Under the pieces are notes generated by a model. The model was given only the letters and a program-made list of their open reading frames with translations, made no database searches and was not told where the DNA came from. From assembly GCA_030374765.1 (NCBI GenBank), contig JARGXX010000001.1:186001-250000 (forward strand): a stretch of DNA of 64,000 nucleotides, read 5' to 3'. The translations under genes and the position numbers were made by a program. Shown piece after piece: positions 11,023 through 63,600 of the stretch. This DNA is from Agarophyton chilense (taxonomy: Eukaryota > Rhodophyta > Florideophyceae > Gracilariales > Gracilariaceae). Position 1 is the stretch's first letter, and each line of letters opens with the position of its first letter.

Positions 11023-11647
11023 TTATGGGGGCGGCGCAGAAGTAACTCTGTCGTCCTCATTGGAACCTGCAGGAGCAAAACCAGAACTAGGGTCACCCGA
11101 GGAGCCATCTGGACCACCAGAACCGGCCCCAGCGAGCCGAGCATGCTTCTTCGGCGGAGATTCGCCTGAGGCTCTATAGTCTCCATCGAAAGCCTCCCGG
11201 GCACTCAAGTTTCGACCATACCGGGCATCAGAGTCGGCAGTAACCCTCTCGGACATCGCCTGCGCATTCTGCTGCAGGAGATTGACCATGCCGGTCTTCA
11301 GGTCCTGACCCTGTTGGACAACCGCGGCGTAGCGAGCCGAGCGACTCGCCTAGGAGCAAGCATTCCCCAGGACCGTGGTAATGTCCATCGAGGCAGTAAG
11401 AGCAACGGTAGGGCAGAATGACATGACCCACTGCCCGCGGATTCCATCCGATGGTATGGTAATAGCGGTTCCCGGGGCGTTCATAGGCCACTTCGTATCC
11501 CGAGGAGCTCCTCGCTTTGTTGTTCGAAGCCATGGTGCCACTACCCACATGTAGGTCTGCCGGGAAATGGATAAGAAAACCGACGGAAGCGACATAGTCC
11601 GAAGGGAGTACGGCGCAACCGACGGGCTTATAAGGCGGATCCGGCAT
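11023..11647 (-). pseudogene. Antisense accessory frame of Element 1, internally deleted
   Basis: The start ATG at 11647 (MPDPPYKPVG) matches the proposed start in Element 2 (MPKSPYKLAG). The N-terminal 75 codons match it closely (VLPSDYVAS, SSSGYEVAYER). The frame then jumps near 11415 to the C-terminal part, skipping about 1.4 kb present in Element 2. The C-terminal end keeps QNAQAMSERVTAD, a short basic run (PPKKHARL) and the Gly/Pro-rich tail ending VTSAPPP. One stop lies near 11350. Function unknown. It is convergent with pol. Confidence 0.6.
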
Positions 11648-12046
11648 CGCGCGCGACCAATAGAAAAGTACCACGATGGTAAGGCGGAGTGACGGAATCA
11701 ACCCGAACGGACTGAAAGGCATGAAACACGGTGCACGAAGCGTGAAGGGTCGCAAGAGGAAGAACCGAGACTAAGGAAGAAGCCAATGGACCGTCTGGGC
11801 AACGCGACGCCAGGAATACGCCGGCGACGCCCCTATGGCCAGCACTCACGGCGCGTGGGAGTTGGTATTCCTTAGGCAAATTAGTTGCCCTTCGGCGCCA
11901 ATGGTCAGCTCACGCTTTCCGGCATCCCCGCTGGCGATGACGACGCGATGTCCCGTCGCGCCTAATGGTACCGGAAGCAATGAAGTGTTTACGTCCCCTG
12001 GGTTAATCATGAGGCCATCTGGACTTCGCCGTGATGGTCGAATCCT

Positions 12047-32581: not shown

Positions 32582-35029
32582 ATTGCATTCATTGGTCAAT
32601 TACAAGGATATAAAAAATGGCCTCACATGAGGCCAATTAGCATCACATGAGGCCATTGCTCGTATAGACAGCAGGTCAACCGTGCAACATATGTCCTAGT
32701 GAAACCCTAATCGAGGCCACGTCCCTAGGACGCGTGTAAATCACGCGTTTGTGGCCAACCGAGTGGGCAATGACGCTCAACTACTATCTGTACTACTCAT
32801 AATAAACGCAAAGACTAAAAACGACAGAATTCGTTGGTAAATACCGTCATGGGGTTAAAAATTCATACGTACCTCGTCATGTTTGAATCAGGTATCCAAG
32901 ATGACACGCACCACATCTGAACACATCGACATAAGTGTATGCTGGTCACCATTTCAATCTCCCAGTAGTGGGATCTAATTTCAATATGCGGATAAAAACT
33001 CGTTCAGAAGCCTACGCTCTCCTGTTTGCGTTCTATTCAATACAATGGTTAGCAATGTGCTGGCGAGGATATTCAACTTTCTATATATACTCGTTGATTA
33101 CATTCTAAAAAACTTCGGTCGGTCCCGTGCCCCATGGGAAAACAACATAAATACTGCCAAAAACAAACCACAGTCGTACTTCTTCGGATTCCGTTTCGTT
33201 TCTCATCAAATAATTGGGATTGCAACTGCAAAGTATGCTTTAATCGTGGACGCACTTCGCGTTCCCTTGGAATATTCTCCGCCGAAGGCATGGCTTCCGT
33301 ACCAGATGCTGGTTTGCTTCTAACCGACTACTTACGCATCATTTCTCCGGTTTGCGTCGTTGTTTAATAAGAATGCGGTGTAAAAAAAGCGCTTTTATTA
33401 AGTTATACAAACGGAAACGGGATAAGTCCGGGTGAAATTCTAGTTCTGGTAATCGAATAGTGGGGTCGGTGCAACCGCATAGCGTTTTCGGTTTAAAAGA
33501 CTATTTTTCGCAGCAGCAAGTCAACAGCTTCTATTCATGCAGCTTTAGGATTTCATGGTTGTCAATAACTTTGCTAGGCACCTGTTGAATATCCCATGTC
33601 ATAGGGTTTCCTCTCCCACTTTTGGCTATACCACACCAAACTTAAGATTAGATACCTCGAACGTCTGGCAGGCCTGAAAGAAATACATGAGAAAAGTATT
33701 CCCAATGCGGGCTGAAAGACAGTGTGTTGGAACTGATCGCTCACTTGTGATTAATTTTTCTTGATGCGCTCGATCGCGCGAACCATCTTCTTGGAAATAA
33801 TCCGCTCTGAACAGCGAGCACATTGCCGGCTCGGGTATATGGTCTCGTACTGAAATGAGGACATCAAACGCATTCTTATAACATACTGAAGCACTTAGTG
33901 TGTTCCTGTACAACGATGTTTTTCGCATCCCGAAGCCTGTTAAAGTGATTATATCGATGTACATCTATTTATTTAGTAGAACTGTTCTTATCTTTTCAAG
34001 CATACTTATTCCATGCTCTGCACCATTGCTATATCCACATCGACTATCCGGAAAGCTGATTCGGGTTTTACAAGGCTCAGTAGCAGTACCGACCGTGGTA
34101 TGTCCTGTTACGGGTTCCCGTTGCCGTTCGTTTTTTGGACTTTCGCATTCCTGCTCATAGATAAAAAAACGCCCAAATGATGCCGAGGATCCTAGACTAC
34201 AGCAACTAGGTTGACTGGGCCTCGGTCTCTCTTGAAAAAGATGGAAAGGCAAGCGGTGGCCGGAAACAGAACCTCTGTTCAGGACGCTGAACTTCGCTCG
34301 CGGGTTATTTCTTCCCTCCACCCCTGACAGAGACATCAGCTATCCCCAAAAAGCTATCAAGCTTCTCTATGCTCAACAATACATCCCAAGGGGCATCTTA
34401 GTGGTTTTTGTGATGCATATAAGTATAATCACTCCAAAGGCTGCAAAAAATCGATGCTCGATAGTGAACCCAATGATGGGATCGATTAAGCCAAGGCGAT
34501 GGATAACCAAAACAGAGAAGCACTAGGCACCCTTTGGAACTACTGCCTGGCGTATGCGCACCTAAACAGATCTGCGTGGTCTGCTCCCGCCGCTACAGCT
34601 GTTGGTGAACCTTCGACACCATCGCTAAGAATTCTTAACCGTGTTGTATCCATTTCAGTAAAGGCGAGTGCCTCCCCAACAAGTCTCTTCAGAGATCATC
34701 TTGTTCTTTCGAGCGGTGGGACCTGGGATTAAAGTTGTAAGTCGTATCTTTGTGGAGAGGTGCGCGAAATTGACTTCCGCTTTTTATAAAATCCTTCCAA
34801 GTGTTACCCACTCCCACTTGTGAAAATGGAGCTGATATCGAACGGAGAATGTATCTTAGCGACGAAGTAGTGTTTCCAGCTCCTGGGTACTGCAGCGATA
34901 GAATCCAATAATTCCATGTAATTTACGAATCTTTCTTTCTTTCTTCATTTTCATTTCTTCTTCTTTCTCTCCACCGAGGTGGTTTAACTATCCCAATCAG
35001 GTGGTGGAGATTGTCGAGGAAATAATTTT
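32582..35029. other. Intergenic with unassigned frames
   Basis: Frames at 33045-33323 (plus, 92 codons), 33626-33964 and 33965-34336 (minus) and 34499-34732 (plus) show no motif I can name. Part of it should be the 3' end and LTR of the minus-strand chromovirus marked by the chromodomain at 35.1 kb. Confidence 0.3.
34926..34972 (-). other. Polypurine run, possible polypurine tract of a fossil chromovirus
   Basis: On the minus strand a roughly 47-base purine-rich run (GGTGGAGAGAAAGAAGAAG then GAAAGAAAG units) lies just downstream of the fossil chromodomain, where a polypurine tract would be. A simple microsatellite is equally possible. Confidence 0.3.
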
Positions 35030-36302: not shown

Positions 36303-36749
36303 CGTGAAGAAGCAATAATACCGGTTGAACCCGGTAAGTCATCGGGCCCTGAAGGATCTTGCAGGTGACACGTGTACGGGTCGACCTCAGGTGGACTCAT
36401 GTAGATTATTGTTTTATTTTAATTAGTGTAATAGATTAATGCTACAGTACCACGGGGATCTCAGCGCCTCGCCAGAACTATTTACTTGGCTGGAGTGACG
36501 CTTCTCCCTTAGAGTAAGGTAGGCACCGTTAGGATACTAAATAACCCCCTTTGGTATATTAGTTCCACCCTTTTATCTTCAAGCCATCATTTACGTAGCT
36601 CCAACGTGTAGGACTACGCAGTAAACGCCATCCCATTGCACCAAGTACTCTGGGAGTGCCACCGTAAAGAATTCGAACCTTAGGACCCGCTCTACCATGC
36701 TACCACCGGTCGAGACCCGTACGCTGACTTAACCCTTCATTGCGTTGCA
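36303..36749 (+). repeat. 5' LTR of Element 2
   Basis: Begins CGTGAAGAAG and ends GCGTTGCA. Antisense A-box/B-box at 36697-36669 (A-box perfect, B-box one mismatch). Confidence 0.92.
36669..36697 (-). promoter_or_regulatory. tRNA-like A-box/B-box pair, Element 2 5' LTR
   Basis: TGGTAGAGCGGG and GGTTCGAATTC on the minus strand, again six bases apart. Confidence 0.5.
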
Positions 36750-36952: not shown

Positions 36953-37977
36953 ATGTCGCCTGACCGTCAGGTTAATACCGCAAGCGACCGCAGGAGCACA
37001 ACGAGCCATCCGCAAGAAGTACTGACCCCACTGGATAACCCTGAAAGGATTCGTCGAGAACCCACGGGGGTAGCGCGTTTACGAGAACCCCTCACCAGGG
37101 CCACCTCTAGGCCAGGGACACCTCAAGGTGAAACCCCCCAGACCGAAGGAATTCGAGAAAACCTGCCCGCAGGTCTTGCCGACCCTCTCTGGCCCCGTCT
37201 CCGTGAGCTCTTCTCAACCCACCTGGATTCCATTATGGACGTGCGACTCGCTACGGCGATCGCTGACCATACGGATTTTATGATCGCGCAAATCATCCCT
37301 AAGGTATTGGAGTCTGACTTATTCATGGACTCCCTTCTACAGGCCTTTCAAGAATCAGTCACCAGACCGGCAGGCAATTTGGTCCCTAGGACCACCCCAC
37401 AAGAAATTAACCATCCGGTCTCCATATGGCAACCCCCTACCGAACCCCCAGGAGCGGCGGAATTATCCGCCCCTCGCCGGGAATACCATCAGGAAAACCA
37501 CGTGGTGGGCCAATCTAGGAGCAGAAGAGAGGCTCCGCGTCTAGATGAAAGACAGGTTGCCCATCAAGAGAATCCAAGGGAGGGACAAGCGAAGAGCAGA
37601 AGAGAAGCTCCGCGTCTAGAAGAGGGACCGCTTGCCCCAATCGACGGATTAAATGAGGTACAGCGACCTCAGGGCTCCATCGGATCTGATACAGAGATCG
37701 ATCCTTTAGGTCCCTACTCCGCTGGAAAGAAAAGCAGCAACCGCAGGAGAAAGAATAAAAGAAGTAACGAAAGAAGAGACCATTCGGAGACGAGTGATTC
37801 CGAATCGGCCTCGACCTAAACGACCGACTCGGAAGTGGATGAGGCTGCCGTTCGAGGCCTCAGACCACTGACAACGACAAACGACCTTTTCTTTAAGGTT
37901 CTAGACTACCGGAATTACCGGCTAGCCGACAGGTCCGCGAAATATTCTGGTTCGGTGGCTCGCAGAGTCACCAAATG
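36953..37977 (+). pseudogene. Element 2 gag, N-terminal half
   Basis: The Element 1 start ATG is ACG here. The next in-frame ATG is at 36953 (MSPDRQ). Same Pro/Arg-rich head, helical block and basic linker (SSNRRRKNKRSNERRD) as Element 1, with the identical TAA at 37817-37819. The frame continues through TNDLFFKVLDYRNYRL to KWAK, where the 2.9-kb insertion interrupts it. Confidence 0.82.
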
Positions 37978-38058
37978 TTTTATTACCGAGCGAATGCGTA
38001 GGTAATTTTTTTTTCCGAGTGAAACAATCCAAGACGCCTCTACATGGTCGGTTTGAAA

Positions 38059-38212
38059 CTTATCTCCACCTCCTCGCGGTGCCGGCCGGGCAGTATTAAC
38101 TGGCTAACGGAGAAAGTCAAGGAGTGATCCTTGGTGGGTGTGAAATCATATGCTATTAAGCAGATGTTTTCAGTTGCGACTTCTGACGCTAATAAGCGAA
38201 AGGATTCAAATT
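38059..38212 (+). repeat. Direct repeat, copy 1, inside the Crypton-like insertion
   Basis: About 154 bp (CTTATCTCCACCTCC ... GGATTCAAATT), repeated at 38504-38658 with roughly one difference in ten bases. Confidence 0.85.
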
Positions 38213-38503
38213 AGTGGGAAAGGTGGGACTGCAAGTGTGATGTGGGGAATACCCCACGAACACGACCAGTTTTCGAGACTATATTGATGACTAAGGTATG
38301 AAAGACTGCGAGTGTGATGAGGACGAAACTATATGCCTCGGGCACAACCGGAATTGATTAGGCGTCATGTAGAATCTACAATCTTAAATAATGTCACCTT
38401 TCTCACATTTCCGTCGCTGTGAGGCCCGAGAAGGTTTTTTAAGCTGTAAGGGTGAGTTGCCGAGGGGGATTAATTAGTCAAGAAAATATGGGCCGGATTG
38501 AAT

Positions 38504-38658
38504 CTTATCTCCACCTCCTTTGCGGTGCCGGCCGGGCAGTATTAACTGTCTAATGGAGAAAGTCAAGGAGTGATCCTTGGTGGGTGTGAAATCAGATGCT
38601 ATTAAGCAGATGTTTTCAAACACGATTTCTGACGGTATTAAGCGAAAGAATTCAAATT
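38504..38658 (+). repeat. Direct repeat, copy 2, inside the Crypton-like insertion
   Basis: Partner of 38059-38212, 445 bp downstream. It contains the codons at the start of the 38577 frame, so the first copy may be a duplicated gene start or promoter. Confidence 0.85.
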
Positions 38659-39098
38659 TTGCAGTTCTGGACAGGATTTTGGAATTTTCTGAATATTCTG
38701 GCTGGGCTGTGGAGAAGAATTTTATCTTCTCTGTGTGGGTGAGTCCTGAGAGAGGTAAAAGAAGTCGTTGGTGCTGTCTGTTTGTGTCTTGCTGTCTGTG
38801 TGTGTTGTTGCGGGTTGATTGGAGAACTCTCTCAGGACTGTTTTTCTCCTTCAATCTACATAGATACTACACGTGGACAACTGGACACGACAGACAGCTG
38901 TACGAAGCTCGGCGTTGGACAAATCTCCAAAGCAAGCGAGAGGCAGCAAGTCTTGCTAAAATAGTAGACTGTATCATTGGATCGTTTGGGATCATGAGAG
39001 CCCGGCGTGAATTGGCAGTTGAAGTCGCTCTACGGCGTTTGGCAGCCGTCATTATGGCGGAGAAGTCAGGCAACTGGGATGCTGCTCGCGAGCTATAG
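38577..39098 (+). pseudogene. N-terminal frame of the Crypton-like element
   Basis: 174 codons starting VGVKSDAIKQMF. The later part is helical and basic (YEARRWTNLQSKREAASL, RARRELAVEVALRRLAAVIM). Inside it 38739-38863 begins GTGAGT and ends TACATAG, so it could be a 125-nt intron, and it holds a perfect inverted repeat TCCTGAGAGAG/CTCTCTCAGGA (38744, 38827). The frame runs on past the stop at 39098 (ERYRRRLHTSAKLRREL). Confidence 0.4.
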
Positions 39099-39348
39099 GA
39101 GGATGACAACGAGCTAGTCCCGGAGAGATATCGACGAAGGCTGCATACATCTGCAAAATTACGTCGTGAACTCGCGGGGCGCTCCCAAAAAGATGAGTCT
39201 GTCCCGGGTGGCGGGGAGACGAATTAGGGAGTTCATTTAATAAAACAACAACAACAGCAACTCGGGGGATTTGGAGTAATGGACAGGCGGGACTTGCTTC
39301 CCCTACAGTGGGCGATCCCAGGTGGATCTGGGCATGTGCAAAAAACAA

Positions 39349-40478
39349 GCTAGTATGAATAGTCGACTAAGGCAGCGTTACGCAAAGTGGCGCATGCTGG
39401 ACACGGTTACTCGAAGACTTGTAGCAGGGCTTAATATCATAAATGCCGGGCATGTCTTCTCTCTAGAGCCTCAAGGTTAGGAGAGAAACGCGGTTCAGCG
39501 GTTAGCGACCACCTTCTTGCGAGACATCGGGGAGGCAGCGTGCCGCCGAAATTATTTCGTTGAGGCGGCTGCCGTCGTTAGGATGAAGGCATATTTTGTT
39601 ATGGTGAAAAGCACTCCTGGGGGCTTATCAACCCTGATCTGGTGTCATTGCCGGTCGAAGGACTGGCGGCGTCTGTGGACGTCTTGACATTATTGCCAGA
39701 AGATATTCGGGTCGCTTATGAGTCGCGAGAATCACAAGCGGAACCGAAGCGGGAAAGGGAGGCCCTCTGGAACCCCTTCTTTGGGGTTCAAGGAGAAGCA
39801 TAGAAAAAGCTTATTGAAAAGCTGGAGGGAGTGGGGATAATATCGTTACAAAGGGAACAAGCAGAAGTAACGAAGGGAGTTTTTGCGGTCCCAGAGAAGG
39901 TCGATGGTTATCTCCCTCCGGGGGATCTGTTGGGACTTGGAATTGACGATATTATGGTACTCGATCTGTCAACGAAAAGGCCGCACTATGGAAGCATGAT
40001 ATTTCTATTTCAAAGCGCGGCCGAAACGAGGCAGTAACAATACGGCCATAGATTATGGCAGTATTGTTGTCTCGATTGATAGAAAAGAAAAAGGGTATTA
40101 AGGGAACATAAGCTTTTTAAAATGCCTCCAGCACGATTTAGGGAGCATCTTCGGCGTGCCGCTGCGCGACTTTCGATAACACAAAGTGTTACCCTTCACA
40201 TGCTGCGGTTTGGCGGTGCCACAACCGATAAACTTTATGGTCGCCTCACCGACCATGAAATAAAGAACAGAGGTCGTTGGGCGTCAGATAAGAATCTTAA
40301 ACTCTACATACAGCCCCACAAGTTGTATGGGTTCATGAAAACATTGACAGACGCCCAGCGACTTCAGTTCGAGGCGGCTATTGCCAGAGCAGCAACGTTA
40401 TTCAACGTTACGCCACCCGCTTGGGTTGGGGGTCGGGAGAACGTGCAAGCACTAGAGGAGGCTAGGAGCAGAAATTAA
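39349..40478 (+). pseudogene. Tyrosine recombinase of the Crypton-like element
   Basis: Broken pieces (RLRQRYAKWRMLDTVTRRL, then the 69-codon frame 39831-40037) lead to the intact C-terminal 119 codons at 40122-40478. There HMLRFGGATTDKL supplies the His-x-x-Arg pair, RGRWASDKNLKLYIQ supplies the second basic/Trp position and the nucleophile Tyr. These are the C-terminal landmarks of the tyrosine-recombinase fold that cuts and rejoins DNA through a 3'-phosphotyrosine. The first Arg, upstream, was not located with confidence. Confidence 0.65.
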
Positions 40479-40861
40479 GGGAGGCTCCAGGACTTAGTGA
40501 TTTCTCGGTGGGTCAATTTCAGTTTTGGACGGAAAATTGATCAGAATCTAAAAAGTTCTGTATAAAATCAATAATTTCTGAAAAACTCTGATTTTCGGAC
40601 CTCATCGGGACTTCTTGGGTCCTGGGGTAGTATGGCGTGGAGATGGGTTTTGACGGAGGATGGGTTAAACCGGCTAAGGCTAGCTAGACTTAGGCGCTCG
40701 CATGGGCTTCGCGTGGAATTACAATTATAAATGCTTTACAATAAATCCTTAGAAATGTTGTTGTTTCAAATAGTATTCCTTTTGTTTAAACGCGAGCAGT
40801 GAGCGAGTGTAGTTCTATTAGCATACGAACGTAGAGAGCGGGCTAGATTGTTGCAAGTAGG

Positions 40862-42098
40862 AAATGGGCCAAACGGATGCAATTAACCATTAAGGACAAG
40901 TTCTCGGGTTCCGATCCAATTGCTGTCCTTATGTTTCTCAGTTTGTTCCGTACGGCCTGCGATCAGAGTGGTGTCCACGAGGGCGCCACTCTGTACCTTT
41001 TACAATTCTTCCTTACAGGACAGGCGCGTGACCGAGTGGTCTCGAAGATATCTAGCACAACTGACCTCGTGGATGCTCAAGACCATGAGCTCCTCAGGTC
41101 ATACCTTCAGGTTGTTCATTACATCTTGGAAACTTACGCCACGGATGGTGTTATAAAAGATGCCCGCCAAAAAGTAATATTTTTTAGGCAGAGCTCCAAC
41201 ATGACCGAATCGGCTTTCGCAGACGACCTATGGAAGAAGGCTTTTCGATGTGGAAGGTGTTCTTCGAAGGACGGCTTAAACGCCACTTCATCAGGGGATT
41301 GCTCCCTGCCATTCGGACGCATGTCCGCAATTACCACACGGAAAGCCCGCGATACTCCTTCCGAATGCTCGTCACTTACGCCGAGGGTTATGGAAAAGCC
41401 TATAGGACCTCCAGGCGCAACGCTGATATAGCCAGAGGACACGCAACTTCATTGCGTAAACCCACCCAAGCCCATTTGGTTAGCTCCACGGAGTCGGACA
41501 TGGATGCTTCAATCCATTACGCTGAATCGGGAGACGTCCTAGCCGTCAATTTCAGTGCTCCTCCATCCGGGCCCCCATCATATACCTCCCAGGGAACGGC
41601 AGCGACCACTGGACCACCCACACCCCAGTATTCTCCATTCCTGCCCCGAAAGGATGTTTTCGTTCGATCCCCCAGATCTTGCTTCCCTTACCTGTCAGTG
41701 ACCCAATCTTGTGACTGTACGAGGTATCTGCCTGAAGACGCACGTAAAACCCTCCTAGCCCTAAGGGAAGAGAATTAACGGGTGCGGAGATCCGAATGAA
41801 TGTATAACAGGTCACAGCAACGAACCACAGGGACCCCTGGAAGCTCACGCTATTCCACGCCTCCGGATACTCTGATCAAAACTTCGCAGGTTCACGCCAC
41901 TGGAAATCCTACGGATGACCCCGTGGAAGAATTTTATCCTCAGGAAGAAACGAAAACCCCATCGAAAAACTTCTGAAGGATCGATTCGAGGCAAATCCTC
42001 CCTCTTTAAGCCCCTGCCTCAACCAATTGGACGGTCATGAGCCAGAGAGCTCCTTACGTCCCAATACGAACCACCCACAATAGACCACTCAGGATGAT
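40862..42098 (+). pseudogene. Element 2 gag, C-terminal half
   Basis: Resumes in the pre-insertion frame (GQTDAINH-type junction, then QLTIKDKFSGSDPIAVLMFL), with ILETYATDGVIKDARQKV. The frameshift near 41250, the stop at 41776 and the Pro-rich tail are as in Element 1. It has extra private stops near 41973 and 42008. Confidence 0.82.
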
Positions 42099-42949: not shown

Positions 42950-44125
42950 GTACTTGATCTCCTCAGGGATTACCAGGCGATGTGGTCAGGTAGATTGGGC
43001 ACAATCAGAGCCACTACACATCGCATTGACCTCCAGGATGATGCTAGACCACAGTTACAGCACCCATACCGTACCGGCCTTAAAGGTAGGGAAATTGTCG
43101 CCGACCAGATGGACAAGATGCGCAAAGCTCAAGTCATAGAGCCGCCGCCACCAAACTAATCCGAATCGGCAAGTCTCCTTGTCCTCGCGGCGAAGAAAGA
43201 CGGCTCCGTCAGGTTCTGTATCGACTACAGGAAGCTGAACGCAGTAACCAAGAGGGGCTCATACCCGATACCCCACATGGACAACTATCTGGATTCCTTA
43301 GGAGAAACTGTCGTATTTAACACACTGGACGCTAACTCCGTATACTGGCAAATCCCTTTGGTCGAAGATGCGAAAGCGCTGACAACCTTTACCACCAATG
43401 AAATTCTGTTCAGATTTACTCGCACGCCCTTTTGTTTGAAGAACGCACCAGCCACTTTCCAACGGGTAATGGACATTATACTGTCCAGAGTCAAATGGAA
43501 GTTCGCCTTGGTCTATTGGGATGACGTTATAATCTTCTCACGGACCGTAAAGGAACTCCTTCGCCACGTGAAGAAGGTGCTAACAATCCTACAGGACGCT
43601 GGAGTAACACTGAAATTCCGTAAGTTTGCTTTCTCCCAGGCCTCAGTGGACTATCTCGGTCACGTCGGCCTCCCAGAAAAGCTAAAAGTGGCCACACGGA
43701 CAACGAATGCGATTCGCCAGGCTAAGCCTCCTAGGACCCATACGGAACTACGATCCTTCGTGGGCTTGTGCAACCTTTACCGACGGTTTGTCCCAGAGTT
43801 TGCCAAGATCTCAGTCCCTCTTAACGCGATGCTGAAGAAGCGAATACTTTCGAAGTTCGAAGCACTTACGGACGACCAGTACGAGGCATTTCAGACCCTA
43901 AAGGATAAATTTCTGAACCCATCCATGTTGGCATTATCAAAGCCCAATAGGCCTTTCGGCCTGGACACATATGCCTCTGATGTGCAAGTGGGTTGTGCAC
44001 TGCTAGAGGAACAGGAGTCACCGAAGGAATATCGCCCTATTGGCTAATGGAGCAGAACGCTCACCAGCGCGGAGCGAAACTACAGTACAACCGAAAAGGA
44101 ATGTATAGCCGTCGTATGGTCCGTA
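42950..44125 (+). pseudogene. Element 2 reverse transcriptase
   Basis: Open for 257 codons at 43277-44047: NTLDANSVYWQIPL, FCLKNAPATFQRVM, VYWDDVIIFS, YLGHVGLPEK, SFVGLCNLYRRFVPEF. Upstream KKDGSVRFCIDYRKLN lies after a TAA (43157) shared with Element 1. The start of RNase H (GLDTYASDVQ) is in frame, then the shared TAA at 44045. All visible RT catalytic residues are kept. Confidence 0.88.
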
Positions 44126-45619
44126 TTGACGCTCTGTCCGTACCTCGAGGTTACCAAGTGTACCAGTAGGATAGACCAAGATTCACTCCGCTGGTTACTA
44201 AATATGACCGATGCTTCGAGTCGCCTGGCTAGGTGGCGCCTCAGGCTGTCAGAATATGACTACGGAATAACCTATAGGCCAGGCATCAAGCACCAGGCAG
44301 CAGATGCCCTGTCGCGAATCATTGTCGACGGAACTGATGACACTCCATTAGACGACCTACTTCCCACCCCCTTTACAGACGATGGACCACAGGACTATAT
44401 AGAAACAGATGACCTTATGGGTAAGGTGCAATCGGAGGATCCTCAGGTAAAGAAGAACGAAGAATACCTATTGGACTGGGAGACAGTACCGCCCGATTCG
44501 GCACCACCCCAAGCTAAGGCGATAGACCTGGAGGAAAAAGAACTCCTCCCTATGACTATTGAGGACCTCCTACATGCGCAGGTCGAGGACGAGTACTGCA
44601 ATGAAACAGCCCAATTGGTAGGAACTCCAGGATGCCTATTAGACTATGACCGATTTGGAATACTATGTTGCCGCTCACCGCTGGGTGGCGCACTCCAACG
44701 GGTAATACCAATTTCGCTAAGGGCGCGATTCCTACACCTCGCCCATTTCCCCCGCTTGGCTGGCCATCCTGGAGGCCGACGAATGTACCAGACTCTAAGG
44801 AAGTTATTCTACTGGCCTCTAATGGCGCAAGACCTATGGCAAACCGCACGGAACTGTGCATGGTGCGCACAGATCCGAGGGTCTCGCGCGAACCATCAGG
44901 CCAAAGTGAAGCTATTCCCTGCCGCAGGTTCAATGGAATTTGCCGCAATGGGTATACTTGGGCCTTTGCCTAAGTCGTCTCATGGGAAATGGTTTGTTTT
45001 GGATATAACCGATAGGTTTACCAAACTTACCCGGGCCCTACCCCTAGAAAAGACAACGGCCACGAATGTCGCCACGGCCTTCTTGTCCCACTGGGTTTAT
45101 CCATATGGAATGCCACTGTACCTCCTTATGGATAACGACATCCAGTTTGTATCCAAATTCTTCTCGCATGTCTGTGCTACCTTAGGTATCAAACATGTGA
45201 CCACCACGGCGTACCACCCCCAAACCAATGGCCAAGCCGAACGTTTCAACCGCACCCTTCTGGACAGATTGGCGCACTCCATTTCGGAGCACCAATTGGA
45301 CTGGGACGAGTACGTTCAGCCACTGGTTTATGCCTACAACACACAGGTGCACGCTTCCACAGGGACAACGACTTTCGACTTAACGCTAGCGAGAGCGCCG
45401 CCGCCGATAGCTGTTGACCTTCAGGAGTCTATCCTACCCCAGGAAATAACCGAAGAAATGACTCCTACCCAGGCGAAGCGCTACTCGCGCCGACGCATTG
45501 ACCGCATTCTCCAATCGGCCAGAACTGTACTAACCAAAGCCCAACGGCGCTACAAGATCAATTTCGACAAAGCCGTTGTAACACACCAATCTTTGGGAAA
45601 GGAGACCTCGTTTACCTAA
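44126..45619 (+). pseudogene. Element 2 RNase H (part), integrase: 497 uninterrupted codons
   Basis: Holds the RNase H end (DQDSLRWLL, QAADALSR), the integrase zinc finger complete (HLAHFPRLAGHPG ... NCAWCAQ), and the core with Asp in LMDNDIQF and Glu in AERFNRT. The first core Asp is replaced by Gly (AAMGILGPL, near 44948), so strand transfer should be abolished even though the frame is open. After 45619 the frame shifts and the GPY-like and linker part continue to the chromodomain. Confidence 0.88.
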
Positions 45620-45753: not shown

Positions 45754-46269
45754 GTGTCTATTGACCGCGTGACAAGAGCTCCCAGTTCCTCCGCACCACG
45801 AACGCCCCAGCTTCCTGGCCCAACGGAAGCACCACGTCCTCACTTCGACACTCAAGTCTCCAGACCCCATAAGGCAGTTCCCGAGCACTCGACTAGCCCC
45901 ACCGACACGATGGTCAAGGCCAACTACTATGACCCATCGCTCCCAACCGACGTTGATGAATTCGCCCCTCTGGACCACACTTTCCTTCTGGAGGATGAAC
46001 ACCAACCGGAATATGTGATTGAGCGCATCATCTCCGCCGGTATGGGAGAAGACGGAACTATGCGCTATCGCGTCCGTTGGTTCGGCTACACACCTGAAGA
46101 AGATACTTGGCAAGAGCCTCAAACCATTCCTGCTAATTTTATCGCCCGCTATTGGAGCAGAGTCAGCCACTCGGAGCGCGGCCTTCAGGAGGGGGCACCC
46201 ATTAGTCCGAATAATCCAATCATTGGCCCGAATAATCCCAAACCGCCTCCCGACACGACGGTTCGTTGA
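45754..46269 (+). pseudogene. Element 2 chromodomain tail
   Basis: 172 codons ending in TGA. The chromodomain at about 46010-46160 reads EYVIERIISA, YRVRWFGYTPEEDTW, IPANFIARYW. It is cleaner than the Element 1 copy. It is frame-shifted relative to the integrase, a break not seen in the same form in Element 1. Confidence 0.86.
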
Positions 46270-46496
46270 AGCTCCCGCATCAGGGAACAAATTCAGTCCT
46301 TCGGAGACACCTGAGGTAGAACCGGGACGCTCTCAAGATGGGATGCCGTCCAGGGGCACGCACATTTGAGATACAAGAAAGACATTGAGAAAGCACAAGC
46401 ACTACTTTATTTAACTTACTCCAGTATCTAACAGAGGCCTAACAGCCCTCAGTATGACCTCAAGGTTCGCGGAAGCGCTTCAAACACCAACAGGAC

Positions 46497-48581
46497 TCAC
46501 TGGGGCGGCGCAGGAGTAACTCCTTCGTCCTCATTGGAACCTGCAGGCACAAAACCGGGATTAGGGTCACCCGAGGAGCCAACTGGATCACCCGAACCGG
46601 CCCCAGCGAGCCGAGCACGCTTATTCGGCGGGGGATCCTCCTGAGGAGCTATTGTCACCATCGGAAACCTCCCTGTCACTCAAATTGAGACCATATGGGG
46701 CACCCAAGTCGGCAGTAACCTTTTGGGACATCGCCTGCGCATTCTGCTGCAGGATATTGACCATGGCGGTCTTCAGGTCCTGACCCTGATGGACAACCGC
46801 AGCGTAGCGAGCCGAGCGACGTGCCCAGGAGCAGACTTTCCTCAGGTGTTTCGCAATGTTCATCGAGGCCGTGATACCAACTGTACGGCAGACATGACGG
46901 AGATCCGCGGCGGCAGCCGTGACCGAAGCAGGAAAGTGGGACCAACGGAGAGGACGGAGCGATGCCGACGCCCCCAGTGAACGTCTGAGAAAGTGCCTCG
47001 CCTAAAGGACTTTCGGTTTCGACGGTAACCTCGCCAATAAAAATAGTCACTTGGGCGACGGGCGCTTCATACGAGAGCTCATCCTGAGGAGCAGCGCCTG
47101 GAGGAGCTGAAGGAGGAGAAGCGGTCGGCGATACAACGGCGGACTCAACCGGAGGATTAACGCCCTCTACGGGTAAGACGAAGGGATCTTCACCAAAGGA
47201 TTTTCCGTCAGACATGCCAGCAAGAACGAACGGCGCGGCTTCCACATCAGGCTCGAAGCAAAGAGGATCGAAACGAATGGCATTAGGATAATAGTCGGGC
47301 ACATGACGCCTCAAATTGTTCGATGGTTGATTCCTCAAGGGCTTGACGAGATAGGCACGGGCGTCGTCCTGACTCTGCGAATGCAGCGGAATCGGCGTGA
47401 ATGAGTAGGTATCCCAGTCATACCAAAAGAATCCCGGGAGTCTGGGCACACTTCACCTGTAGAACATGATCCAAAAAGGCCTCGGTCTCCTCGACGTCGA
47501 ACAGAATCCCACGGACGATGTGTTGTACGCACAGATTCCTTAAGAAACGGATCATGATGTCCAGGAGTAAGATTAGGCGACCTTGAGGACCAGGTACGTT
47601 CTCATCATACCACACCCTCCATTCCTCCGAACGGACAAAACCCCGGATTCCATATTTCGTGGTATCCAGAAAGGCCATTAGGGACATCACGCCGAAGTCG
47701 ACGAAAAGCACCTGCCAGGACAGCCAGGACCTTCGGTCATGGTCAGCGCCCATGAGGTGGGACAAGTAGTACGCCACCACGGACGGCGTGGGAACCAGAA
47801 GGAGCGGCGAGAAACGCCAATACACGGCCAATTGGTTCTCATCCTCATGGGGCAGGGAAAGGTACAACGGAATGCATTTGTCGGCGCTCATGTCGTGGAA
47901 CTCCACTTGGTGCCAACAAAAGAAGAACCCAAAGGATTGCCGCAGATGACCATCAGAATCGTGCATCTCGTTCCAATAGACCCGGTTTTACATCCAAAAT
48001 AAGTGGTCGAACGGTGGCCGAAAGCACATAAGCGCCAAGATGTTGTGAACAGCCGGAGGAAAGCGCGCATGAGGTGAGATGAAGTCCGTGTATAGGTCCG
48101 AAAGGAGTTTTTTCACCCAGAACTGGTAGTCGGCTTCTTCCTCGCAGCGGACGTACGGCATATCCGCTTGGACGAGTGTGCGACATCTCGTCGCAGAGCG
48201 CGGATCCACAGGACAATGCAACCATTGGTTATACCACGAGATGCTGTGCGCGTTCTTGTTGCGCCTCTGGAAGTCTGGTATCTTGGCAAACCTTCGGGCG
48301 TCGAGATACATGTGGCAAAACCTTTGGTATTCTTCCACTGAAGACGGCAGAACGGCATGACGCACTTCCCGCGGGTTTCTTCCGATTGTATGGTCATGGC
48401 GGTCCCCCAGACGCTCGTAGGCCACTTGGTATCCCGAGGAGCTCCCCACTGGGTTGTTTGAGGTCATGGTACCGCTGGTCACAGGGCAGTCCGCCGGAAA
48501 ATAAATGGGAGAGCCGGTGGAGGCGACATAGTCCGAAGGAAGTACGGCGTATCCGGCGAGCTTATAAGGTGATTTCGGCAT
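46497..48581 (-). pseudogene. Antisense accessory frame of Element 2, about 695 codons, unknown protein
   Basis: Convergent with pol, between the chromodomain stop and the polypurine tract. ATG at 48581 (MPKSPYKLAG). Long open runs are 48746-47988, then past one TAA in the same frame to 47418, then a one-base shift to 47449-46676 and a further shift into the C-terminal frame. The composition is protein-like: SISWYNQWLHCPVDP, ADYQFWVKKLLSDLYTDF, RFPPAVHNILALMCF, FFFCWHQVEFHDMS, an acidic Pro-rich stretch, a helical Gln-rich stretch (VNILQQNAQAMSQKVTAD), a basic run (PPNKRARL) and a Gly/Pro tail. No domain recognised. The N- and C-terminal translations are conserved in Element 1. This copy is broken. 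Confidence 0.65.
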
Positions 48582-48979
48582 CGCGCGCAACCAATAGAAA
48601 GATACCACGAGGAAAAGACGAAGTAACGGAGTTGACCCGAACGGACTGACAGGCGTGAACCACGGTGGACGAAGCGCGGAGGGTCGCCAAGGGAAGAACG
48701 GAGACGAAAAGAGAACCCAATGGACCGTCTCGGCCACGCGATGCAAGGGATACGCCGGCGATGTACCTATGGCCAGCGCTCACGGCTCGTGAAAGTTTCA
48801 ATCCTTAGGCAAATTAATTGCCTTTCTGCGCCAATGGTCGGCTCACGCATCCAAACATCCCCGCAGGCGGTGACGACGCGACGTACCGCCGCACCCAACG
48901 GTACCGGGAGCAATCAAGAAAACGCGTCCCCTGGAGCAGATATGAAACCATCTGGACTTTGCCGTGACGATCGAATCCT

Positions 48980-48992
48980 AAGGAGGGACATA
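48980..48992 (+). other. Polypurine tract of Element 2
   Basis: AAGGAGGGACATA abuts the 3' LTR. Confidence 0.78.
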
Positions 48993-49433
48993 TGTGAAGG
49001 AGGGATAATACCGGTTGAACCCGGTAAGCCACCGGACCGTGAAAGATCTTGCAGGTGACACGTGTACGGGTCGATTTCAGGTGGACTCATGTAGATTATT
49101 ATTTTGTTTGAATTAGTGTAATAGATTAATGCTACAGTACCACGGAGATCTCAGCGCCTCGCCAGTACTATTTACTTCGCTGGAGTGACGCTTCTCCCTT
49201 AGAGTAAGGTAGGCACCGTTAGGATACTAAATAACCCCCTTTGGTATATTAGTTCCACCCTTTGGTCTTCAAACCATCATTTCCGTAGCTCCAACGTGTA
49301 GGACTACGCAGTAAACGCCAGCTTATTTCACCAAATACTCTGGGAGTGCCGCCGTCAAGGAATCGAACCTTAGGACCCGCTCTACCACGCTACCACCGGT
49401 CGAGACCCGTACGCTGACTTAACCTGCGTTACA
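48993..49433 (+). repeat. 3' LTR of Element 2 (441 bp)
   Basis: Starts TGTGAAGGAGGG and ends TGCGTTACA, with a small deletion just before the end. Antisense A/B boxes at 49387-49359 (TGGTAGAGCGGG and GGTTCGATTCC, both within consensus). Confidence 0.92.
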
Positions 49434-58633: not shown

Positions 58634-60025
58634 TCACGGCTTCATGGAGCGAGGGGCGCGGAATCGAGAAACAGCTGCCTTCGAATTTCTAATACGAGAG
58701 CTCTGACGTGCTTCTCTGTGGCGTGCAACCCAAGTTTCCTCTGCCCCGTGAAGCACAGTTGAGTCAGACTCATCTTCAGATGTTTCGCTTTCATGTAGCT
58801 TCTGCATGGTCCTGGATTTGGAGATGCCTTTTCTGCATGCCCTTCCCTTCACTCCTTTCCGTGTAGTCTTACGCTGCCGCTGCTGTTTTTGTGGCGCTTG
58901 AGAGTGATACTCATCATGTTGGTCTTTGTTGTCATCATCGAATTCACCCGAATTGTTGGACAATGTGGAAATTTGGTTGAAGGGGCGCTTGTTCGAGGCC
59001 CTCTCGGTCACAGCAGCCTGCAACTGGTTACTGTTCTGCTCGTTGCGATAGGGCTCACCGCTCTGATTGTGAATACTATGTTGATCGGGTTGCGGAGGAT
59101 GGCCACTAATGTCTCTTGGATAGCACCTAGTAGACGAACCGGCGTTACTAATTGAATGCAGTGCAGAGTGGCCGTGGCGTTGAAGTACTTGATCGTCATC
59201 TGGAAGAGGTCCAACTTGTGCAGACCTGTCATTGCCCCTTGCAGTGCGCTTTCGCGAACGTTGATTCTGGTTTCGTCGTTGAGTTTGGCTAGAGCGGCAT
59301 CTCCCACCGTCAGACCTGTAATTCATTCGCATCGCACCACCTTGCACATGCTCCCCTGACCGGACATGCATAGAGAGAACACGAGACACAACGGGAGACA
59401 CAACGGGAGACACAACGGGCTTGGGGCCGTTCTGCTCAGGTGCATGTGCACTCAAGTCGTTCTGGATTCCGCCAAGATCAGTGCACAATAAACGTCTCCT
59501 GGCTGCCTTTTTCGAAGCTTCGATCAAAGCCTTCTTATCGCGTTGCATGGATTCCTTGATAAACTCCGTCGCCAGCCAGCAGTTCTGAGCCGCTCCGAGA
59601 ACTGGAAATGCATCCACAATCTTCCGCTTGAGATGCGTCAGTTGAGTGGCATACTCGATTTTCACAGAAGTGAATGTCCTTTCTCCGCGCCTTAATGACA
59701 TCCTCTGATACAGAAACTGCCTGATGACGTCCTTTACTGCGTTTGCCATCTCTGCATACACAGGATAGTTTTCATTCGATGGAGCCGAAGTTCCCATCTG
59801 CTCCCGGTACAGACGGTTAAAAACTAAGCGCGCTGAAAGAACGGTGCCGGTGGGAACGCCAGGCCTATCTGATACCTTCATTCTCCGTTTATAGGCCGCT
59901 GTTGGAATGCCGATAGTGTTTGGGAGAACTATATGACCCCCCGACCGGCTGTCGATGATGCTTTCCTGCTGCATCGACGACTGATTGTAATCTGCAGTGA
60001 CTGGGTTAATAACTCGAGACCCCAT
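58634..60025 (-). CDS. Basic, low-complexity protein of 463 residues, possible transposon partner gene
   Basis: ATG at 60025 (MGSRVINPVTADYNQ), TGA stop. Residues 1-175 look folded (TGTVLSARLVFNRLYREQM, YAEMANAVKDVIRQFLYQRM, AAQNCWLATEFIKESMQRD). The rest is rich in Gln, Asn, Arg and Ser, with a PVVS triple repeat and a basic run typical of nuclear localisation (RKTTRKGVKGRACRKG). It is divergent from the TNP2-type transposase, with 638 bp between the starts. CACTA elements often carry a second DNA-binding gene beside the transposase, so it may play that part. I do not recognise the family, and a host gene is possible. Confidence 0.7.
   Translation of the reverse strand: MGSRVINPVTADYNQSSMQQESIIDSRSGGHIVLPNTIGIPTAAYKRRMKVSDRPGVPTGTVLSARLVFNRLYREQMGTSAPSNENYPVYAEMANAVKDVIRQFLYQRMSLRRGERTFTSVKIEYATQLTHLKRKIVDAFPVLGAAQNCWLATEFIKESMQRDKKALIEASKKAARRRLLCTDLGGIQNDLSAHAPEQNGPKPVVSPVVSPVVSRVLSMHVRSGEHVQGGAMRMNYRSDGGRCRSSQTQRRNQNQRSRKRTARGNDRSAQVGPLPDDDQVLQRHGHSALHSISNAGSSTRCYPRDISGHPPQPDQHSIHNQSGEPYRNEQNSNQLQAAVTERASNKRPFNQISTLSNNSGEFDDDNKDQHDEYHSQAPQKQQRQRKTTRKGVKGRACRKGISKSRTMQKLHESETSEDESDSTVLHGAEETWVARHREARQSSRIRNSKAAVSRFRAPRSMKP
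59385..59420 (-). repeat. Three 12-bp units within the 463-residue gene
   Basis: GACACAACGGGA three times (last base C in the third), coding the Pro-Val-Val-Ser repeats. Confidence 0.92.
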
Positions 60026-60663: not shown

Positions 60664-63600
60664 ATGAACATGTCCACGTCCTTCTTTCAATCTAGAAAGC
60701 GTAAGGGGAGATGGCAAATGCGTGGCAAACGATGGGAACCCCCAGCACCCGTCTCTCAAGAAAGCTCCGAACAATATACAAGGCTTCCCGAGCAAGCCCC
60801 TTGCAGAAAAAGAAGGTGCAGATGGGAGCTCGAGCCCGAGCAGAAATTGCTGAATGATGAGCAATCTATTTCTCCACTTCAAACGCAGAAAGATTTGAGC
60901 GAAATGGAGGAGAGCTCCGATGTGAGGGGATTTGATCTTGGTAGAGAGGAGGATTCACCCCTTCATGTGCCCATCGTGAATCCTCAAAACAGTTTCCATA
61001 ATCTTCCCGTGGATGCGAAAAATGAGGATGCGCAACTTTCGTTGTTGCAACATGGCGCTATCAGTCCTTTGGATGCGTATGCTTTCGATATAGACAGACA
61101 GAGCTCTGCCTTCTATGAATCCGATGATGGCCAAATGTCCGGAAGTGCCGAAGATTCTGACCCTCAACAGGCTTCCCAACTTTCCCTTTCCTCAGATGCC
61201 ATTGCTGGTTTAGAAACGAGGAATACAGGTGTACAAAGCGCTGATGAGTTCAGAAGGCTTGGAGCCTTTCTCTATACTGCTGAACTATCAGGTATATCTC
61301 AGAGAACATTAGAAAAGCTTCTCACTGTTGCCCCAATCAACGCCATGGTTTCATACCGTACAATGCTTTCGTTCGCTGTTCGCAACTCCCTCGCGACGGA
61401 ATCATATGTGCAGATGTGCAGGGAGGGTCATACTGCTTCCGCCGGCAGGCTGAGAAACACAGTTAAATGTCCTGCCTGTGAAAATACTATCAAAGGAATT
61501 GGAAGTGCAAAGTTCTGGTACTTGAGACCGACAGTTGCAATCAAGGCACTATGCCGAGTTCGTGACTCGTTCCAAGAACTTATTGAAGGATGCAAGCGAG
61601 CCAAAGATGCTTGCATGGAATCAATAAATGTTGCCGAGGACCAAGATTTCCATCATGGTAATATGTTTCAAAGAAAATTCTCCAGCTGCATGCAGCAGTG
61701 GGATGAAGAATCAGATGTGCTGCATTTGTTTCTCACATTCTCCACAGATGGTTTTGAGTGCGCAAAGAACAGAAAGGGGCAACCAATATCTTCTTGGCCC
61801 CTCGTTTGCACAGTGTTGAACTTCAGCGTAGAGGAACGATCGAGAGCAAATAACACCCTCATCCTCGCCGTTGTACCTGGCTCTCATATATCCCAGTACT
61901 TTGACACATTCATGTCTGAAATTGTGAAAGACTTTCGCCAGCTACAGAAAGGTGTCCAGGTTGTCTGCCATGATAAGCGTATCCGACTTGTCCGAGCACA
62001 CGTCCTTTTCTTCACGGCTGACTGGCCTGCAGCTTCAAAACTGCTGGGGTACGTTGGACACACCGGTACAGTGTTTTGTAGATTCTGCCTCAAGCAAAAG
62101 ACGTACATACCCGAGTGTAACAGCTCTTACGTTGTTCCTCATATTTCATCTGGCCTTGTGAAAGCTGTGTTGGAAAAGAGGAGAGGGCGTAAAATTGTCT
62201 ACAAAGTTGGGGACATTATCAACATCGAATGCGGCTCGGCTCGCCACGAATGCGATATCATTTCCACGTGGGGCAAGCTCAAACGACTCGGCGATGATGC
62301 TGCTGCCGGAATGAATGAAATTGCACGAAAAACCGGCATCAAACGCGATTCTTGTTTTCGAAAGCTTTCGATGGACTTCAAGTACTCTTTTCCATACGAC
62401 GTGATGCATCTGGTACTCTTGGGCTGGAGTAAACATTTGCTGAAGCTTCTCTGCGGATTTCACGCTCGCCATGAGAAGATGGAAACGACTCCGAGCTACT
62501 GTATACCAAGGAACACACTCCACAAGATAGATAGTAACATGGATCGATGTTCAGGAGGAATTCCTGTTTCATGGGGGAGGCCACCGTTGGCTCTCCGTGA
62601 CATAGAAAGATATAAGGCCGAGGACTTCAAACGTCAGTTAGAAATATACCTCGTTCCATTTCTGCATCGTGAAGGAGTTGAGGGGAAAATATTAACTATA
62701 TGTAGGCTGACGTCGAGGCTGATATCAATATGCTTCCAATATCAGTGTGTGGATGGTAAAGTTGAAGAGTTAAAGAATGTTGTGGAGGAGCTGTACGCAA
62801 GGTTCGTCGATTTGTTCTACAGAAAACCTTCAGATGCGTACTGCTTCACACCTACAACTCATGCAGTATTGCACCTTCCAGACCTTTTGAAACAGTGTGG
62901 TCCTCTTCCAACGACATCTCAGTTTCTTATCGAGCGACTTCTTGGGGACATGGGAAGGCGAATGACCTCCAAGACAAATGTATACTCTCACTTGTTCCAT
63001 AAGAACCATAGACTATTCGCCCTTCGGATTATGAACAATGGACTTGCTCCGCGAGTCGTCGAAGAGAAAACTCTGAGACTCACGAGCGAAACAAGTGATC
63101 AGGACTCTGAATCATCAGGCGAAGGGAAAAGTACACGTTATACCAGTACAGGCGTCGAGTGTCATGGAACTGGAATCGAGAGCGAGGTATGCGGAGAAAA
63201 AAGAAGTTCTATATCAAGGTTCATGAGGCAGAACGTCTCCAATGGCGTCCAAAGCTATAGAATCACTTCTCTCAAACAGTACCAGTGGGCTACAATCTTC
63301 AAAAGTAATCAACAATTTTCCATTGAAACCAAGGAGTGGTACACGAAACGATGCAAGTCCACACGTGGAGCGCGTCAAAAGCATTGCATCGCGGGAGAGT
63401 TTTTGAGGGTTGACGAAGCACAGATCGATGCTGATTCTCATTCTGGAGTATCCCATACGACATCACTTCGAAAGACGAGAGATCTGTACTATGGTGAGGT
63501 ACAACGGATATTCGAGGCCTGCATCGAAATAAATAGACAAGATGGGAAGCGAGTGCTCATGTTAGCTCTTTTTCAGATCAAGTGGCAGTATGGGTGTGTG

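What the first reader, a model, noticed from the sequence alone, without database searches (positions are those of the whole stretch)
46497..48581. Chromovirus carrying a long antisense accessory gene between chromodomain and polypurine tract
Seen: a minus-strand frame of about 695 codons, convergent with pol and inside the element boundaries. The counterpart in Element 1 (11023-11647) has the same start region (VLPSDYVAS, SSSGY.VAYER) and the same C-terminal tail (QNAQAMS..VTAD, basic run, Gly/Pro end) despite a large deletion. The composition is protein-like and I know no domain for it. Known: some plant gypsy/copia lineages have antisense or extra ORFs after pol, but chromoviruses normally have none. 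Inference: a captured gene expressed from the opposite strand, possibly regulatory or Gag-assisting.
Basis: partly seen in the sequence, partly recalled or inferred. Interest (0 to 1): 0.82.

Follow-up and report, generated by a model that had tools for sequence, protein, structure and literature searches.

The report
Conserved antisense gene in seaweed retrotransposons
A family of jumping genes in a red seaweed carries an extra gene written backwards near one end; the gene is damaged in this copy, but it has been kept by selection and recurs in related jumping genes of the same seaweed, with a relative in another seaweed genus, so it probably helps the jumping genes.

Summary
The genome, almost certainly the red alga Agarophyton chilense, has at least 60 copies at 70% identity or more, one open for 748 codons. 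In 26 non-redundant sequences, shared variants fall on codon positions 1/2/3 as 108/67/192, private variants are flat (267/272/226), and the stretch before the ATG shows no bias. dN/dS falls from 0.73 to 0.31 with distance. This is purifying selection on the antisense frame.

Several other chromodomain families of this genome carry a homologous gene at the same place and strand. Of 118 scored places, 61 have no stop and a frame of 590 codons or more. Gracilariopsis chorda has a 617-aa relative annotated as hypothetical (44% identity). No Pfam or PDB relative was found.

Antisense genes between pol and the 3' LTR are known in plant Retand/Grande and fungal Boty elements. Here they form a protein family without TRP28 in red algal chromodomain elements. 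The function, a nuclear accessory regulator made from its own antisense transcript, is inferred.

The parts
36304..36749 (+). 5' LTR of Element 2
   Evidence: direct repeat with the 3' LTR, 93% identity over 431 nt; outer ends placed by eye
43160..44047 (+). pol piece: reverse transcriptase (PF00078) and start of RNase H
44048..45619 (+). pol piece: RNase H end, integrase zinc-binding and core domains
46012..46161 (+). chromodomain (PF00385)
46406..46411 (-). AATAAA on the antisense strand, beginning 86 nt after the antisense stop; candidate poly(A) signal of the antisense gene
   Evidence: read; AATAAA at offsets 64-92 after the gene end in 24 of 30 fetched loci; identical in 18 of 24 non-redundant copies, more conserved than 94% of spacer 6-mers
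46497..48581 (-). antisense accessory gene, broken in this copy (one in-frame stop at 47988-47990, three frameshifts)
   Evidence: selection in the family
48582..48992 (-). interval between antisense start codon and 3' LTR; would have to hold the antisense promoter if this is not in the LTR
   Evidence: interval aligned; no TATA-like block in the matching 460 nt of one other copy, L009; the window itself was not scanned
48980..48992 (+). purine-rich stretch before the 3' LTR (candidate polypurine tract)
   Evidence: read by eye
48993..49433 (+). 3' LTR of Element 2
   Evidence: ends placed by eye
11032..11427 (-). Element 1: C-terminal remnant of the antisense gene (residues 551-682)
11411..11650 (-). 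Element 1: N-terminal remnant of the antisense gene (residues 1-80)

Best explanation
It is a protein-coding accessory gene that belongs to the retrotransposon. It is encoded on the strand opposite to gag-pol, between the chromodomain and the 3' LTR. In the window's family it has been kept by purifying selection, and homologous antisense genes sit at the same place in several other chromodomain-bearing families of this red algal genome (shown by sequence). Because the genomic RNA carries only its complement, it can be translated only from a separate antisense transcript made from integrated or extrachromosomal DNA. That transcript would start near or in the 3' LTR and end at the antisense AATAAA, short of the pol stop (inferred from anatomy). 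The protein has a conserved aromatic-rich core, a proline-rich linker, a C-terminal part modelled as helices at low confidence and, in the window family, a basic PPKKRAR-like tail. Most likely it enters the nucleus and regulates the element in trans, at transcription, RNA handling or integration (inferred, by analogy with antisense proteins of Grande and HTLV-1). I put the conserved antisense coding gene at about 0.95 and the nuclear regulatory role at about 0.4; the number below is for the whole statement.
For: Selection in the window's family: shared variants by codon position 108/67/192 against flat private variants 267/272/226, contingency P about 4e-14; no significant bias before the ATG (14/18/8, P 0.15). 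Shared variants synonymous:non-synonymous 183:184 against 233:785 for private ones. dN/dS median 0.49 over 325 pairs in the antisense frame against 0.57-1.19 in the other five, falling to 0.31 at larger distances. Position: integrase end and chromodomain beside the gene in 25 of 25 non-redundant loci. Other families: homologues in antisense in L043-L047 and 118 and 138 scored places of their kind. The chromodomains from a capped list of 150 that lie within 3 kb 3' of such a gene (27 genes of 316 have one) are on the opposite strand in 27 of 27. Homology of the two gene types: profile-profile E 1.9e-5 over 141 columns; rerun score 50.0 against at most 27.9 in 30 column-shuffled controls; direct protein match E 1.8e-6 with the 652 type, only in the antisense frame. 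Another genus: Gracilariopsis chorda P0014, profile E 2.3e-198. Antisense AATAAA. Basic tail: a K/R-rich cluster in 8 of 8 alignment rows that cover it, with substitutions in some.
Against: No RNA or protein evidence exists here. Both structure models failed (mean pLDDT 32.7 and 27.8), so the fold and any biochemical role are unknown. Family B (L043-L045; open frames over the chromodomain of 1307-1425 codons) keeps only a C-terminal part of the gene with a shared frame change, so the gene may be dispensable there or supplied in trans. One chromodomain element, L041, shows no homologue in the 4 kb read. Within the type C subfamilies recent copies show no clear frame-specific constraint. Seven sequences picked by DNA, the window's own among them, give only 0.66 against 0.78-0.92. 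The chromodomain piece used beside the integrase control shows no third-position excess (35/21/32). The basic tail was not seen by eye in the type C proteins, so nuclear import by it is not general. The genomic place of the Gracilariopsis protein was not seen.
Confidence: 0.55

Rival explanations
1. The antisense gene encodes a structural or Gag-assisting protein of the particle (capsid helper, RNA packaging or envelope-like protein) rather than a regulator.
For: A pattern search found no CCHC zinc knuckle in any of six frames of either window element, so the usual Gag nucleic-acid part was not recognised.
Against: A particle protein made from a separate antisense mRNA would not be coupled to gag-pol output; no Gag, envelope or capsid family matches. 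The missing knuckle may only reflect decayed copies.
Confidence: 0.2
2. The antisense transcript itself is the functional product: it pairs with the genomic RNA and limits copy number through small RNAs, and the frame is kept for reasons linked to it.
For: Antisense RNA would be fully complementary to the genomic RNA; a dsRNA role is proposed for such elements (PMC7264820, passages).
Against: It does not predict the excess of third-position changes, the low stop count, or protein similarity at 23-40% identity without blastn similarity between families. It could act in addition.
Confidence: 0.12
3. The antisense gene began as an independent mobile or viral gene inserted next to pol, and it now persists as a passenger with its own function.
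For: No cellular source found; several families share it at the same site; an unknown viral origin is proposed for Retand antisense genes (PMC11963269, Discussion).
Against: The type C alignment found no relative in viral contigs or prokaryotic genome contigs; the family A alignment could not be scanned. Whether copies of the gene exist outside elements was not examined systematically. This rival says where the gene came from, not what it does.
Confidence: 0.1
4. Not a gene: an open frame left open by composition, or a shadow of coding on the other strand.
For: Some opposite-strand frames of type C are long (298-411 codons), and the frame sharing the wobble position also scores in comparisons.
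Against: In family A the three opposite-strand frames have 7 to 34 stops per sequence. The antisense frame scores highest in 9 of 10 family pairs, the tenth having no match, and is the only one matching in the three pairs between family A and type C that match. The coding signal starts near the ATG.
Confidence: 0.03

Closest known systems
Antisense additional ORFs (aORF-3R) of plant elements such as Grande, RIRE2 and Retand (Retand ones mostly with TRP28 domain, PF04195)
   Same: Gene between pol and 3' LTR, antisense to gag-pol, conserved in most copies and across species, role not known (PMC7264820, section 5 and passages; PMC11963269, passages and Discussion).
   Different: Retand is described there as a non-chromovirus lineage; the proteins here do not match PF04195; the host is a red alga.
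Boty-like elements of Botrytis cinerea with the antisense gene brtn
   Same: Antisense additional gene in an LTR element outside plants (named in PMC7264820 section 5; the brtn paper's title seen in the reference list of PMC8365987).
   Different: No sequence of brtn was available to compare; whether Boty has a chromodomain was not established from the passages seen.
HTLV-1 HBZ and related antisense retroviral genes
   Same: Antisense gene of an LTR element with a nuclear protein (passage in PMC11963269); its place at the 3' end is recalled.
   Different: The proteins here match no Pfam bZIP or other model; that HBZ is a bZIP protein is recalled.
Chromoviruses (chromodomain Ty3/gypsy elements)
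   Same: RT, RNase H, integrase and chromodomain in the window element.
   Different: The word 'antisense' does not occur in the two chromovirus papers searched by term, PMC2864245 and PMC3605345.

Membership tests
Chromovirus (Ty3/gypsy with chromodomain) | reverse transcriptase, RNase H and integrase | tested here: met
   PF00078, PF17917/PF17919, PF17921, PF00665
Chromovirus (Ty3/gypsy with chromodomain) | chromodomain at the integrase end | tested here: met
   PF00385, 32.7 bits against a cut-off of 25.1
Chromovirus (Ty3/gypsy with chromodomain) | long terminal repeats | tested here: met
   431 nt at 93%
Chromovirus (Ty3/gypsy with chromodomain) | place in the chromovirus clade of the RT tree | not tested
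   no tree was made
Antisense additional ORF between pol and 3' LTR (aORF-3R) | position and strand | tested here: met
Antisense additional ORF between pol and 3' LTR (aORF-3R) | present and conserved in most copies | tested here: inconclusive
   25 of 25 non-redundant loci have integrase end and chromodomain beside it, but the loci were found by the gene, so element copies lacking it were not sampled
Antisense additional ORF between pol and 3' LTR (aORF-3R) | antisense transcript | not testable with these tools
   no RNA data
Retand TRP28 antisense protein (PF04195) | match to Transposase_28 | tested here: not met
   no PF04195 match in P0001 (to E 10), in four L046/L047 frames (to E 1) or in members of A4 and A5 (to E 1); one place in the genome below cut-off, 20.2 against 26.2 bits, on contig C115
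Boty brtn | sequence similarity to brtn | not tested
   no brtn sequence at hand
HTLV HBZ-like antisense bZIP protein | bZIP domain (recalled as the defining feature) | tested here: not met
   no Pfam family in P0001 to E 10; no bZIP model listed for A4 or A5 members to E 1

The most novel reading that the evidence does not exclude
Chromodomain retrotransposons of red algae hold a lineage-wide antisense gene family, with no relative found outside them, that arose independently of the plant Retand and retroviral antisense genes. The slot antisense to the genomic RNA just before the 3' LTR would then have been filled convergently by trans-acting nuclear regulators several times. A protein readable only from integrated or extrachromosomal DNA could sense and control copy number or direct where the chromodomain integrase goes.
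Probability: 0.3. Interest if true: 0.8.

Novelty: new variant of a known kind. Interest (0 to 1): 0.6.

Why it matters
What antisense genes do in LTR retrotransposons is called unknown in the two papers seen in part (PMC7264820, PMC11963269). A second family, without the TRP28 domain, in a different branch of life and in chromodomain elements, with many open copies in one small genome, gives an independent test case and an argument that this gene position is useful to the element. It also suggests that some proteins annotated as hypothetical in gracilariacean algae (for example Gracilariopsis chorda BWQ96_03215) may be retrotransposon genes.

Tried and rejected
Structure: two AlphaFold2 jobs, on A1 (26 rows) and A4 (15 rows), gave mean pLDDT 32.7 and 27.8, so no fold search was run. 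Solved structures by sequence: only chance-level hits or none. Pfam: no family for the antisense window pieces, P0001 or the L046/L047 frames, and only single weak matches (E 0.035 to 0.26, one member each) among members of A4 and A5. Viral and prokaryotic contigs: 93 and 25 pattern matches for A5, none a relative. Recent type C copies are too young to show selection. A TATA-like search upstream of the ATG found none in L009. ARAGORN found no tRNA in the window, so the tRNA-like look of the LTR was not pursued. Rejected: chance frame, sense-strand gene, single capture in one copy.

Bias noted: the 30 loci used for the selection test are the best 30 by protein score of 60 scored of 1595 candidates. 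Such picking could favour synonymous differences. Private variants of the same copies show no such lean, and a small DNA-picked set (L001-L007) leans the same way more weakly. One search split the frame one codon early: its 'before the ATG' part is the first 65 of the 66 codons before the ATG. In one search only 46 of 138 rows were entered, some because a chromodomain had been seen nearby; one search repeats it with all 138 and gives the same number of partners, 20.

Full report
What was checked. The finding claims a long minus-strand frame at 46497-48581 inside a chromodomain-bearing LTR element. In the window the element has LTRs near 36304-36749 and 48993-49433 (ends by eye), 93% identical over 431 aligned nt. 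Its pol pieces match reverse transcriptase, RNase H and integrase, and a chromodomain follows. The minus-strand stretch runs from an ATG at 48581 to a TGA ending at 46497, but it is not one open frame. Against an open copy from elsewhere in the genome it aligns in four pieces over three frames, with one in-frame stop. Element 1 keeps residues 1-80 and 551-682 only.

Genome and copies. The window is G000:C1:186001-250000 of a 79.8 Mb assembly. An NCBI protein of Agarophyton chilense (P0006) matches one place at 100% over residues 41-312, the next best by score being 77%, so this is almost certainly that red alga. A protein search with the open copy P0001 (748 codons, of which 66 precede the ATG) scored 60 of 1595 candidates, all matching at 70-100% identity, two of them without a stop in the match. 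A search with a distant relative, P0013 (47% identical to P0001), scored 150 of 499 candidates and all matched. These are lower bounds.

Selection. Thirty-one sequences were registered to the open copy, and 26 kept after dropping those 97% or more identical to one kept. Dead copies gather neutral private changes, while changes shared by three or more copies mostly arose in the propagating lineage. From the ATG to the end, shared variant columns number 108, 67 and 192 at codon positions 1, 2 and 3, and private ones 267, 272 and 226 (contingency P about 4e-14). In the 65 codons tested before the ATG the shared counts are 14, 18 and 8 (P 0.15), so the signal begins near the ATG. In the same loci, registered to the window, the integrase end gives 21, 23 and 42 (P 0.009), the chromodomain piece 35, 21 and 32, the spacer 15, 18 and 18, the interval from ATG to LTR 19, 36 and 27, and the LTR 20, 14 and 22. 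The chromodomain piece thus fails as a positive control, perhaps because part of it lies outside the domain. Registered to the frameshifted window copy, the antisense stretch itself gives mixed phases, 103, 133 and 134.

Synonymous to non-synonymous counts are 183:184 for shared and 233:785 for private variants in the antisense frame (Fisher P about 6e-21). Pairwise dN/dS has a median of 0.49 over 325 pairs against 0.57-1.19 in the other five frames. By distance it falls from 0.73 near dS 0.1 (29 pairs; one closer pair gives 1.00) to 0.31 near dS 0.5 (4 pairs). The frame at 0.57 shares its wobble position with the antisense frame and carries 23 to 34 stops per sequence. Against: seven sequences picked by DNA, the window's own among them, give 0.66 against 0.78-0.92, the same direction but weak, as expected for young neutral differences.

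Place in the element. In 25 of 25 non-redundant loci (of 30 fetched) the integrase end and the chromodomain lie beside the gene; 24 also carry the ATG-to-LTR interval and 23 the LTR, at 70% coverage or more (counts less the window row). An AATAAA on the antisense strand follows the gene at offsets 64-92 in 24 of 30 loci, and it is more conserved than 94% of the spacer's 6-mers (18 of 24). The copies share ancestry, so this is suggestive only.

Other families. I fetched about 4 kb downstream of eight of the 150 listed chromodomains, all with open frames of 1227 codons or more. L043-L045 (family B, 96.5-98% identical over 2.2-2.3 kb) carry in antisense a homologue of the C-terminal half, E 4e-17 to 1e-18 to the open copy, with a frame change at the same spot in all three. 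L046 and L047 carry antisense frames similar to each other (40% and 34% identity in their two parts) with no blastn similarity. L048 has decayed antisense pieces 3.3-3.9 kb downstream. L041 has none, and L042 continues into a 1149-codon frame on the sense strand and was set aside. Genome searches with the L046 and L047 proteins scored 118 and 138 places. Of the 118, 87 have no stop in the match and 61 have no stop and a frame of at least 590 codons. The list of 150 chromodomains (of 1935 candidates) offers a partner within 3 kb on the 3' side for 5 of 118, 20 of 138 and 2 of 60 genes. In all 27 cases it is on the opposite strand, and none lies on the 5' side in the latter two sets, where that was looked at. 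The low numbers fit the capped list, but genes without a chromodomain are not excluded. Sense frames next to four type C genes also hold a chromodomain, two of them below the Pfam cut-off.

One family. Aligning 15 stop-free type C rows gave conserved blocks (A4). Profile comparison of family A with type C gives E 4e-5 and, with the relatives P0014-P0017 added, E 1.9e-5 over 141 columns. With only two type C sequences it was not significant (E 0.053 and 0.31). Thirty column-shuffled controls reach at most 27.9 against 50.0, and the reversed profile gives 18.6. Direct comparison of family A with three of four type C subfamilies gives E 1.8e-6 to 1.4e-4, only between antisense frames; the fourth (611 type) gives none.

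Beyond this species. The closest full-length relative is P0014, annotated as hypothetical protein BWQ96_03215 of Gracilariopsis chorda (617 aa, 44% identity, 94% coverage, E 2.3e-198); P0015-P0017 come from unnamed records. Where P0014 lies in its genome was not seen. The type C alignment found no relatives among viral or prokaryotic contigs; the family A alignment could not be scanned.

How it may work. The genomic RNA contains only the complement of this gene, so the protein needs its own transcript from DNA (inference from strand). In the window family the C-terminus ends in a basic PPKKRAR-like cluster, seen with variations in 8 of 8 alignment rows covering it; that such a cluster can act as a nuclear import signal is recalled. 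No fold was obtained. By analogy with Grande, whose antisense protein is nuclear and has its own promoter, and with HTLV-1 HBZ (PMC7264820 and PMC11963269, passages), I favour a nuclear accessory regulator. A Gag helper or an RNA-level role are the main rivals.

What is known. [quoted passage not shown] Retand ones mostly encode TRP28 (PMC11963269, passages and Discussion). The proteins here fail the TRP28 test. In ten searches of the held library no listed title or abstract start describes antisense genes in red algal or chromodomain elements. Only listings were seen for most of these papers and most subscription papers are not held, so this is not proof of priority. I rate it a new variant of a known kind.

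Noticed in passing
window 38047-38116 (+), in a nested insertion about 37977-40862: Match to the drz-agam-1 HDV-like ribozyme family just above the gathering score (37.2 against 37 bits), inside an insertion that interrupts Element 2; it may mark the 5' end of a non-LTR element (recalled association).
   Followed up: no
window 60664-63798 (+): 1044-codon open frame with a Transposase_21 (tnp2) match, E 7.7e-10; that tnp2 belongs to CACTA-type transposons is recalled.
   Followed up: no
window 58634-60025 (-): 463-codon open frame with no Pfam match, next to the tnp2 frame.
   Followed up: no
window 15307-16329 and 31035-32057: Inverted copies, 75-84% complementary in three stretches of 121-459 nt, about 15-16.5 kb apart.
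   Followed up: no
window 33755-33850 (+): Weak remnant of the type C antisense protein, E 2.7e-4 in a custom profile search.
   Followed up: no
L043-L045: Family with long open frames over the chromodomain (1307-1425 codons) whose antisense gene keeps only a C-terminal part, with a frame change at the same place in all three copies; loss in progress, or a frameshift of use, is open.
   Followed up: partly
window LTRs, about 49300-49400 (-): The LTR looks tRNA-like by eye (B-box-like stretch), but ARAGORN reports no tRNA.
   Followed up: partly
Gracilariopsis chorda BWQ96_03215 (P0014): A protein annotated as hypothetical is a full-length relative of the retrotransposon antisense gene, so host gene sets may contain more of these.
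   Followed up: no
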